From the IMG/VR virus record IMGVR_UViG_3300045996_002431, positions 1-64,000 of that record: a stretch of 64,000 bases of DNA, one strand, 5' to 3'. Shown piece after piece: positions 19,226-22,476 of the stretch. This DNA is from a virus. Each line of letters begins with the position of its first letter. Position 1 is the first letter of the stretch. A program made the position numbers and the translations under genes. The notes under the pieces are model-generated. The model made no database searches and was not told where the DNA came from. It saw only the letters and a list, made by a program, of their open reading frames with translations.

Positions 19226-19504
19226 ATGGAAAAGAAAGTACGAATAAAGAGAAAAGAACTGATCGCAAAAAGAAATCCCGGTTGCATTGTTATTGATGAC
19301 TTTCACGTTGTCGAGAACTTTGAGAACGACGCAGTATCTGACATTATAAGAAGCGCCACGGCTCATTCAGCAGCAAGAAAGATAGCCGGTAGATTCAGAG
19401 TGGAGATGTTGAAGTTGCTCAATGATATTACCGCAGGCAATCCATCCCACGAAAGATTGATAGTGAGAATTAATGAATTAAAATCAAAATATAACCATGA
19501 ATAA
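19226..19504 (+). CDS. Hypothetical basic protein
   Basis: A 92-residue protein with a very basic start (MEKKVRIKRKELIAKR) and a helical remainder (SDIIRSATAHSAARKIAGRFRVEMLKLLN). Likely nucleic-acid or partner binding, without a recognised family. It overlaps the next gene by 8 bp. Confidence 0.55.
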   Translation: MEKKVRIKRKELIAKRNPGCIVIDDFHVVENFENDAVSDIIRSATAHSAARKIAGRFRVEMLKLLNDITAGNPSHERLIVRINELKSKYNHE

Positions 19505-20378
19505 TTTCCAAGAATTAAAAGAAGAATTGTTAGTAAAAGCAAAAGAAGCTAACGCCTGCTCTTCCGAATACAGGAGAGCGTATGGATCAGAAACCCAAGA
19601 ACAGTTATTAAAAGTAGTATACGATAATTTAAGTTGGTGTTTTGATCATAAAATTATTTCTGACGAATATTTTTCAAAATTCGATCAAGAAATTTTCCTA
19701 AAATCAGGCCTCGCAAATACAGGAGAATGTAATACTGGTTTTGCCAACGACGGATACGCCAACGCCGGAAACCGAAACGCCGGATACGCCAACGCCGGAA
19801 ACTACAACGCCGGAAACTACAACGCCGGATACGCCAACGCCGGAAACGACAACGCCGGAAACTACAACGCCGGAAACTACAACGCCGGAAACCGAAACGC
19901 CGGATACGCCAACGCCGGAAACGACAACGCCGGAAACGACAACGCCGGAAACGACAACGCCGGAAACTACAACGCCGGAAACTACAACGCCGGAAACTAC
20001 AACGCCGGAAACCGAAACGCCGGATACGCCAACGCCGGAAACGACAACGCCGGAGCCTTCAATACTATTCAATCTCCATACATGATGTTTAATAAGCCAT
20101 CTGACTGGACTTTTGAGAAATTCAGAGATTCAACAGCCTTCGGTCTTCTTAATTCAATAGACACAACTCTTTGGATCCCATCAGACAATATGAGTGATCA
20201 AGAAAAGAAATATCATCCATACCACGAAACGACTGGCGGTTACATTAAAAATATTCCTTTCAAAGAGGCTTTTACTAACCAATGGAATAATTGGTCAAAT
20301 TCTGCTAAACAATCATTTAAAGACCTGCCCAACTTTGATGCTGAAGTGTTTTTTAAAATAACCGGTGTAAAGATGTAA
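19497..20378 (+). CDS. Pentapeptide (xNxGx)-repeat protein
   Basis: A 293-residue protein. Residues about 76-188 are a run of five-residue units of the form NAG followed by NY, ND, NR or YA. This matches the xNxGx type of pentapeptide repeat, which can fold as a regular solenoid. The DNA is a 15-bp tandem repeat. N-terminal residues 1-75 are helical. The C-terminus (WTFEKFRDSTAFGLLNS... FKDLPNFDAEVFFKITGVKM) is a unit I know from pentapeptide-repeat proteins of phages and mobile elements. Function is unknown; DNA-mimic proteins of other pentapeptide types inhibit gyrase, but that is only an analogy. Confidence 0.75.
   Translation: MNNFQELKEELLVKAKEANACSSEYRRAYGSETQEQLLKVVYDNLSWCFDHKIISDEYFSKFDQEIFLKSGLANTGECNTGFANDGYANAGNRNAGYANAGNYNAGNYNAGYANAGNDNAGNYNAGNYNAGNRNAGYANAGNDNAGNDNAGNDNAGNYNAGNYNAGNYNAGNRNAGYANAGNDNAGAFNTIQSPYMMFNKPSDWTFEKFRDSTAFGLLNSIDTTLWIPSDNMSDQEKKYHPYHETTGGYIKNIPFKEAFTNQWNNWSNSAKQSFKDLPNFDAEVFFKITGVKM
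19724..20053 (+). repeat. 15-bp tandem repeat tract
   Basis: About 20 units of CGCCGGAAACTACAA-like sequence, in register with codons. Units differ mainly at one or two codons (TAC, GAC, CGA, or TACGCC), so variation is confined to fixed positions. Because the unit is a multiple of three without stops, other frames and the complement are also open across it. Such tracts can change length by slippage. Confidence 0.85.
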
Positions 20379-21935: not shown

Positions 21936-22094
21936 CTAACGGTTGCATGTTGATCCGTGTGCAATGGAAGATAGCCTAGAACGGATCCCACATTAAAAGA
22001 CAGGGAAGGATATTGTACACGCGAATGGTAGTAGTCTACTGGGTGACGAGGTTCAATGCAAGTGCGGTAGTCGGCACACTCCCTGTTTAAATAA
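21936..22094 (+). ncRNA. Structured non-coding segment (two hairpin modules)
   Basis: GATCCGT (21952-21958) pairs with ACGGATC (21981-21987) around a 22-nt loop. ACAGGGA (22000-22006) pairs with TCCCTGT (22080-22086), closing an 87-nt domain with an inner GTGC/GCAC hairpin (22062-22077). The 87-nt size and 7-bp closing stem recall a class II tRNA, but no acceptable T-arm precedes the 3' strand. No credible reading frame is present on either strand. Confidence 0.4.
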
Positions 22095-22313
22095 GCACCT
22101 GTGGCGGAAATGGAAGACGCACTACCTTGAATGGTAACACAGAGACTCGCGGGTTTTACGCTGGCGAGAAGTCGAATACCATAATGCCTATCGCTGATCG
22201 AAAAGGAAGTTACCTCGAAAGAGATATTGTACAATAGATCGAAATGGAAAGCCAGTAGTTAGTACAGATAGGAGAGAAAGACTTGTATGGAGGTTCGAAT
22301 CCTTCCAGGTGCT
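22095..22313 (+). tRNA. Class II tRNA-like gene interrupted by about 120-130 nt
   Basis: The 5' part is GCACCTG (22095-22101), TG, a Leu-like D-arm with stem GCG/CGC (22104-22106, 22118-22120) and a TGGAAGA loop, then the 5' strand of an anticodon stem (22121-22126). The 3' part is GTAGT (22254-22258, complementary to ACTAC at 22121-22125), a long variable-like segment, a canonical T-arm (22289-22305, loop TTCGAAT) and CAGGTGC (22306-22312), fully complementary to the 5' acceptor strand. Between the halves are extra hairpins, including CTCGC/GCGAG and a palindrome TATTGTACAATA. The insert is too small for a normal group I intron. It may be an unusual intron, or a decayed tRNA. Confidence 0.5.
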
Positions 22314-22338: not shown

Positions 22339-22476
22339 TGTCGCTAAGACGAAGTGAATACAGTGGCCTATAACGATCATAGATGTGGTTTTGGCTTATA
22401 ATCAAAACATCACTAAGGTGATTCGCACCCGGCAAGGTCGCTCCCCAACGAGCATTGCATTCACCTCTTAGCGACA
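22339..22476 (+). ncRNA. Structured RNA with long closing stem
   Basis: An 11-bp helix (22339-22349 with 22466-22476) is extended, after a small internal loop, by GTGAAT/ATTCAC (22354-22359, 22459-22464). Inside are four local hairpins: CTAT/ATAG, an imperfect GATG..TTTTG/CAAAACATC, GGTG/CACC and GCTC/GAGC. It ends 19 bp before the start of the membrane protein gene at 22496, so it could be a cis-acting leader as well as an independent RNA. I cannot match it to a known family. Confidence 0.55.

What the first reader, a model, noticed from the sequence alone, without database searches (positions are those of the whole stretch)
22095..22313. Interrupted class II tRNA with an undefined ~120-130-nt insert
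A perfect 7-bp acceptor stem and a textbook T-arm lie 200 nt apart from a Leu-like D-arm and half anticodon stem, and the two anticodon stem halves (ACTAC, GTAGT) also match. The insert is near the anticodon, as in group I intron-bearing tRNA-Leu genes, but is much shorter than the roughly 200 nt of the smallest well-known self-splicing group I introns and lacks clear P7 core sequences. It contains its own hairpins. It could be a new minimal intron, a tRNA-derived regulatory RNA, or a decayed gene.
Basis: partly seen in the sequence, partly recalled or inferred. Interest (0 to 1): 0.7.

Follow-up and report, generated by a model that had tools for sequence, protein, structure and literature searches.

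The report
Phage tRNA-like RNAs lacking anticodons
A virus of bacteria carries an RNA gene with the two ends and the elbow of a transfer RNA but a long foreign-looking stretch where the decoding part should be; hundreds of similar RNAs turned up in other viruses, including the laboratory phage SPP1, so this appears to be a widespread, little-noticed kind of RNA that probably does not decode the genetic code.

Summary
The interrupted tRNA is real: window 22095-22313 has a 7-bp acceptor stem, Leu-type D-arm and 5-bp T-arm around a 168-nt middle; shuffles give about 0.017 such ARAGORN calls per window. It is probably not an intron. Kin phages (TerL 43-44%) carry other tRNA-like genes with perfect top halves and unrelated middles. 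A pattern holding only D- and T-arm found such RNAs across viral contigs: in 108 of 120 the ends form an acceptor stem the pattern did not ask for. A second class (T-loop UGCAAAU, 6-bp T-stem) gave 119 of 122, including unannotated genes in phages SPP1 and Gut-P1. In both classes anticodon stem and U33 are gone, whereas simulated introns would have been detected (z -1.64 versus -0.14). Instead a stem ends 2 nt before the T-stem, where a class II variable arm sits. I read the window RNA as a non-decoding tRNA-like RNA: constant tRNA scaffold, hypervariable insert. Its task is unproven; a decoy for a host tRNA-binding factor is my first guess. An intron is not excluded for this one copy.

The parts
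22095..22313 (+). whole tRNA-like RNA gene (219 nt; 22094 may add an eighth acceptor pair)
   Evidence: ARAGORN intron mode, own scanner, shuffles
22095..22101 (+). acceptor stem, 5' strand GCACCTG
   Evidence: 7 Watson-Crick pairs with 22306-22312
22104..22120 (+). Leu-type D-arm GCG-GAAATGGAAGA-CGC (A14, A15, G18G19 present)
   Evidence: sequence
22121..22288 (+). 168-nt middle that replaces anticodon arm and variable region; hypervariable in relatives
22121..22125 (+). putative anticodon-stem 5' half ACTAC (doubtful)
   Evidence: chance 19% by shuffle
22255..22259 (+). putative anticodon-stem 3' half GTAGT (doubtful)
   Evidence: as above
22288..22288 (+). U48, partner of A15 in the Levitt pair
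   Evidence: T at this place in 75/79 class 1 relatives
22289..22305 (+). T-arm GGAGG-TTCGAAT-CCTTC
   Evidence: 5 pairs, one G-U
22306..22312 (+). acceptor stem, 3' strand CAGGTGC

Best explanation
The segment encodes a non-decoding tRNA-like RNA of a widespread phage type. SHOWN by sequence: the top half of a tRNA (acceptor stem, D-arm, T-arm, A15-U48) is kept; what lies between D-arm and T-arm is expanded and differs between phages; in the family the canonical anticodon stem and U33 are absent and a stem ending 2 nt before the T-stem occupies the place of a class II variable arm. INFERRED: host RNase P and RNase Z trim the ends and CCA is added, giving a stable tRNA-shaped scaffold that carries a variable RNA domain instead of an anticodon. 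GUESSED (about one in three): it acts as a decoy or competitor for a host factor that recognises the acceptor/elbow of tRNA, such as a tRNA-directed defence enzyme, with the insert keeping it out of the ribosome.
For: Interrupted tRNA beyond chance. Independent tRNA-like genes with perfect acceptor/T/D arms and unrelated 106-177-nt bodies in kin phages G006 and G026; none in 1.29 Mb of other viral DNA. Class 1: 108/120 pattern hits show >=6/7 acceptor pairs, not asked for by the pattern; 79 nonredundant inserts, 37 of them on the same acceptor AGTCAGG. Class 2: 119/122 with acceptor pairing, 118/119 with a sixth T-stem pair, T before the T-stem 85/85. Variable-stem position: z -0.88+-0.11 (class 1), -1.63+-0.16 exactly 2 nt before the T-stem (class 2). 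No anticodon stem: z -0.14+-0.14 and +0.32+-0.11, against -1.64+-0.10 for simulated introns. Changes on both sides of helices among close relatives: L237 versus L200 group, L282 versus L183, L273 versus L235. Many carriers have no other tRNA gene, so it is not debris of a tRNA array.
Against: The window copy has no close homologue, so covariation cannot be tested on it. It keeps U33 and possible anticodon-stem halves, unlike most of the family, and its best helix 2 nt before the T-stem holds four G-U pairs. It does not match the exact D-arm pattern used for the family (GGAAGACGC for GGTAGACGC). Function is not shown: no antisense match to the phage's own genome beyond chance, no conserved neighbour gene, no transcript data.
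Confidence: 0.6

Rival explanations
1. A tRNA with a new, very small intron in the anticodon loop, self-spliced or removed by a protein, here joining ...CTACCTT(GAA) to ..GTAGT.
For: ARAGORN builds a tRNA with a 126-nt insert in the anticodon loop. The window copy and G026 L169:2241-2416 both read CGC-ACTAC..., keep U33, and offer GTAG before a variable arm.
Against: ACTAC/GTAGT has a 19% chance; the family lacks the anticodon-stem signal and U33 although simulated introns show it. No shared insert or Rfam group I match. Sequence alone gives two different anticodons (GAA contiguous; UGU in ARAGORN).
Confidence: 0.12
2. A decaying tRNA pseudogene whose lower half has filled with random sequence.
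For: Inserts share no sequence between phages; no function known.
Against: Acceptor, T- and D-arms stay perfect in hundreds of copies with unrelated inserts; U48 and the variable-stem position are kept; helices change on both sides; solitary copies in compact genomes.
Confidence: 0.1
3. A processing element: the tRNA shape invites RNase P and RNase Z to cut the polycistronic phage transcript, and the RNA between the cuts is free to vary (tRNA punctuation).
For: Only the top half, which these nucleases read, is kept. Start codons follow the 3' end within 40 nt in 18 of 76 class 1 relatives and in several copies of G006 and G026 by eye.
Against: Ordinary tRNAs of the same contigs show it nearly as often, 21 of 138. 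Does not explain the kept variable stem.
Confidence: 0.12
4. An amino-acid donor: a leucine-accepting RNA kept out of translation, used by a non-ribosomal transferase.
For: Leu-type D-loop; base 73 is A in 58 of 79 class 1 relatives; class 2 has a G at position 55 and a 13-bp acceptor/T helix, features that should weaken normal translation use (the last step is established knowledge of tRNA-Sec and EF-Tu, not tested).
Against: Base 73 changes to G between close relatives (L237, L268) and is U in the window copy; no transferase gene recurs next to it. The D-arm was part of the search pattern.
Confidence: 0.06

Closest known systems
Class II tRNA (tRNA-Leu)
   Same: acceptor 7 bp, D-loop GGCGGAAxxGGxAGACGC, T-arm, A15-U48, variable stem ending 2 nt before the T-stem; Rfam RF00005 scores class 1 relatives at 32-44 bits
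   Different: no anticodon stem or U33 in the family, middle 58-168 nt instead of about 34; the window copy is below the Rfam and plain ARAGORN thresholds
Group I introns in tRNA genes (tRNA-Leu UAA of cyanobacteria and others)
   Same: insert near the anticodon of a Leu-like tRNA
   Different: far shorter than any known group I intron, no Rfam match, no shared core, anticodon stem not kept in the family
tmRNA
   Same: tRNA-like ends with the anticodon arm replaced by an insert with helices
   Different: intact D-stem, no tag reading frame recognised, no Rfam tmRNA match, far smaller
Phage tRNAs that evade tRNA-directed defences (PMC10264068, PMC11555353)
   Same: phage-borne tRNA-shaped RNAs whose anticodon region departs from the host's
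   Different: those are intact decoding tRNAs with point changes; these have no anticodon arm
ROOL and GOLLD RNAs (PMC12286853)
   Same: structured phage RNAs of unknown function near tRNA genes; one class 2 gene (L395:1269-1373) starts 20 nt after a ROOL RNA
   Different: much larger, unrelated structure, not tRNA-shaped

Membership tests
Expanded, anticodon-less tRNA-like RNAs of phages (defined here) | 7-bp acceptor stem formed by the two ends | tested here: met
Expanded, anticodon-less tRNA-like RNAs of phages (defined here) | Leu-type D-arm and T-arm, U48 | tested here: met
   one base off the family pattern (GGAAGACGC)
Expanded, anticodon-less tRNA-like RNAs of phages (defined here) | variable-type stem ending 2 nt before the T-stem | tested here: inconclusive
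   best helix -9.7 kcal/mol but four G-U pairs
Expanded, anticodon-less tRNA-like RNAs of phages (defined here) | anticodon stem and U33 absent | tested here: inconclusive
   U33 present; stem halves no better than 19% chance
Group I intron-bearing tRNA | P3-P7 catalytic core, match to Intron_gpI | tested here: not met
   no Rfam match at gathering score or up to E 10
Intron-bearing tRNA of any kind | flanking anticodon-stem halves pair after removal | tested here: inconclusive
   possible for this copy; not for the family
Intron-bearing tRNA of any kind | splicing | not testable with these tools
   needs RNA
Functional decoding tRNA | 7-nt anticodon loop on a 5-bp stem | tested here: not met
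   plain ARAGORN and Rfam do not call it; contiguous arm would have a 6-nt loop and an unpaired C27/A43
tmRNA | tmRNA tRNA-like domain with tag ORF | tested here: not met
   no Rfam tmRNA match; forced ARAGORN tmRNA mode gives only a senseless permuted call

The most novel reading that the evidence does not exclude
Phages of many lineages carry a distinct class of effector RNA built as a natural tRNA scaffold: a constant, host-processed tRNA top half whose anticodon arm has been swapped for a hypervariable RNA domain that acts on the host, for example as a decoy or inhibitor of a tRNA-directed defence or of a tRNA-binding enzyme. The window RNA is one of them.
Probability: 0.35. Interest if true: 0.92.

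Novelty: new variant of a known kind. Interest (0 to 1): 0.8.

Why it matters
Why phages carry tRNA genes is an old question, and the answers on offer (codon supply, evasion of tRNA-cutting defences) assume RNAs that can decode. A large set of phage RNAs that keep everything of a tRNA except its decoding end would separate the non-decoding uses of the tRNA fold from the decoding ones. Biotechnology already hides RNAs in a tRNA scaffold by replacing the anticodon arm (known to me, not looked up); phages would have had the same design. A copy in SPP1, an old laboratory phage of Bacillus subtilis, makes the matter testable at once.

Tried and rejected
Group I intron: a passing likeness of CAGAGACTCG (22140-22149) to the P7 strand of tRNA-Leu introns has no Rfam support and no room for P3-P6. 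Pseudoknot between anticodon loop and variable region: pretty in single cases (L182, L178, L262), but given the variable stem it is not enriched, z -0.21+-0.12, so dropped as a general feature. Antisense action on the phage's own transcripts: no excess (class 1 relatives and window copy). Punctuation: start-codon distance little different from ordinary tRNAs. Conserved neighbour gene: only common phage genes, methyltransferase and terminase most often. Relatives by single flanking proteins: none in viral contigs; found only after aligning ATPase and exonuclease with distant phages. RNAs at the same locus in kin L010 and L011: none, the helicase follows the ATPase directly. tmRNA: not met. First reading of the class 2 hits gave 0 of 120 acceptor stems because I assumed a 5-bp T-stem; with a 6-bp T-stem 119 of 122 fit.

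Full report
1. The observation. The window belongs to a 75,216-base IMG/VR virus record. Its proteins (BT4734-type primase, SNF2 helicase, exonuclease, SbcC-like ATPase) point to a phage of Bacteroidota, an inference. Between the ATPase gene (ends 21935) and a small ORF (starts 22496) lie 560 bases without a plausible gene. In it, 22095-22313 has a 7-bp acceptor stem, a 3-bp Leu-type D-arm and a 5-bp T-arm. A scanner written here for acceptor + D-arm + T-arm agrees.

2. Kin phages. Single proteins found no relatives. Aligning the ATPase with distant phage homologues gave L010 and L011, and an exonuclease alignment then gave L051, L053 and L054, whose records hold a large terminase 43-44% identical to ours. 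A terminase alignment added L148-L154. In these records the scanner finds further tRNA-like genes with perfect acceptor and T-stems but bodies far longer than a tRNA: G006 (L133:15200-15326, 127 nt; L133:18801-18915; L134:15675-15782) and G026 (L169:2087-2228 and 2241-2416 in tandem; L168:17253-17357). Their middles share no sequence with each other or with the window copy. In 1.29 Mb of other viral loci the scanner found two normal tRNAs and nothing expanded. So the phenomenon recurs in this clade, but not at one locus and not with one insert.

3. A wide family. I searched viral contigs for a Leu-type D-arm followed 61-91 nt later by a T-arm half; the spacing is too long for a tRNA-Leu and too short for two tandem tRNAs. 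The pattern says nothing about the acceptor stem, yet in 108 of 120 the flanking sevens pair at six or seven places. They fall into 79 nonredundant inserts; 37 of these sit on the same acceptor AGTCAGG/CCTGACT: constant scaffold, changing insert. Many contigs hold no other tRNA. Rfam's tRNA model matches class 1 members over 110-126 nt with 32-44 bits, so annotation pipelines may well file them as odd or pseudo tRNAs. The same pattern over 84,980 bacterial and archaeal genomes gave 72 stretches; 41 have paired acceptors, of which seven are visibly duplicated tRNA-Leu genes, leaving about 34, many in Bacteroidota (Bacteroides, Sphingobacterium, Dysgonomonas, Chitinophaga), some in Paenibacillus, four alike in cyanobacteria.

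4. A second class and isolates. A 30-base query of the D-arm in annotated phages led to unannotated stretches in isolates: Bacillus phage SPP1 between genes 9 and 11 (X89721.1 3423-3532), Lactiplantibacillus phage Gut-P1, Leuconostoc phage phiLM33_01 and Flavobacterium phage FL-1. The first three have the T-loop UGCAAAU. A scan for that class was again cut at 120; of these plus SPP1 and Gut-P1, 119 of 122 have paired acceptors and 118 of the 119 a sixth T-stem pair, a 13-bp acceptor/T helix. FL-1 (about 175 nt, TTCGA loop, 6 acceptor pairs) is closest in size to the window copy.

5. No anticodon arm. If these were tRNAs with introns, the anticodon-stem halves would still pair. I put random inserts into 17 intact tRNA-Leu genes: the helix starting at base 26/27 then stands out with z -1.64+-0.10. 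The family gives -0.14+-0.14, class 2 +0.32+-0.11. U33 is 17/17 in the intact set, 25/79 in class 1 and 26/85 in class 2. What does stand out is a helix whose 3' strand ends 2-4 nt before the T-stem (z -0.88+-0.11; next places -0.17 and -0.05), in class 2 exactly 2 nt before it (z -1.63+-0.16, and nothing at 0 or 1 nt). That is the place of the variable stem in class II tRNAs. In class 2 its 5' strand begins mostly 8-18 nt after the D-stem, leaving no room for a normal anticodon arm. U48, partner of A15, is kept in 75/79; in class 2 the base before the six-pair T-stem is T in 85/85. Close relatives show changes on both sides of helices: GATAAC/GTTATC to GGTAAC/GTTACC (L237), ATAG/CTAT to TTGG/CCAA (L282), GTAAC/GTTAC to GCAAC/GTTGC (L273).

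6. The window copy. It shares acceptor, D-arm, T-arm, A15 and U48. It differs by a longer middle, a kept U33 and, perhaps, stem halves. G026 L169:2241-2416 is its nearest likeness (CGC-ACTAC... GTAG, then a variable arm). For these two an insertion into an anticodon loop remains possible. I give the intron 12% and non-decoding tRNA-like RNA 60%.

7. How it may work. Inferred: ends trimmed by RNase P and RNase Z, CCA added, a stable tRNA-shaped body. The task is open. A decoy or competitor for a host factor that reads the acceptor or elbow fits the constant top half and the fast-changing insert (arms race), and that some carriers have nothing else of tRNA kind. A processing element fits too, but start codons lie downstream hardly more often than after ordinary tRNAs. 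Antisense to the own phage genome is not seen; host targets could not be tested.

8. What is known. Reviews and searches on odd tRNAs, phage tRNAs and structured phage RNAs named no such class. The library lacks most subscription papers and preprints, so priority is not settled; I therefore rate it a new variant of a known kind (tRNA-like RNA) rather than categorically new.

Limits: both viral scans were cut at 120 rows, D- and T-arm are conserved by construction of the patterns, redundancy was removed by insert similarity only, helix energies come from a simple stacking model, and no RNA was measured.

Noticed in passing
window 21998-22088: Well-folded RNA (9-bp closing helix AGACAGGGA/TCCCTGTTT, z -3.3) directly upstream; shares the 11-mer GATATTGTACA with the insert of the tRNA-like RNA (22009 and 22223). 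Not tRNA-shaped.
   Followed up: partly
window 22340-22475: Another well-folded RNA (10-bp closing helix GTCGCTAAGA/TCTTAGCGAC, z -3.3) directly downstream; no Rfam match.
   Followed up: partly
L053:8480-8745 and L054:9750-9960: Coding-free stretches next to tRNA-like genes in kin phages, rich in GNRA and UUCG hairpins; both hold GTCTGGTAAAC and a GGTAGCGG motif.
   Followed up: no
L184:13388-13459, L197, L203, L222, L225: A second tRNA-like RNA 3-4 nt after the expanded one, whose anticodon arm is a closed hairpin (CATACAA-CACC-TTGTATG) with no 7-nt loop.
   Followed up: no
L217 and L261 upstream flanks, L201 downstream flank: Shared hairpin ACGGCTCGGAAAGACGAGCAACAT placed just before tRNA-like genes in unrelated contigs.
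   Followed up: no
L395:667-1248: ROOL RNA (Rfam, 260.7 bits) ending 20 nt before a class 2 tRNA-like gene.
   Followed up: no
L365:1015-1061 (SPP1): A 47-nt mini tRNA-like hairpin pair (acceptor and T-arm only) followed by a T-run, just after the tRNA-like gene of SPP1.
   Followed up: no
L295, L308, L319, L339: Four cyanobacterial genomes share an expanded Leu-like gene with a conserved insert (AAAAACCTT...AAAGGC...), the only insert seen conserved across host genera.
   Followed up: no
L168:17157-17242 (G026): tRNA-like gene with an 18-nt anticodon loop that folds into a further hairpin (TTGG-TGAAAAT-CCAA).
   Followed up: no
window 19497-20378: Pentapeptide-repeat protein gene whose repeat region is open in several frames on both strands.
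   Followed up: no
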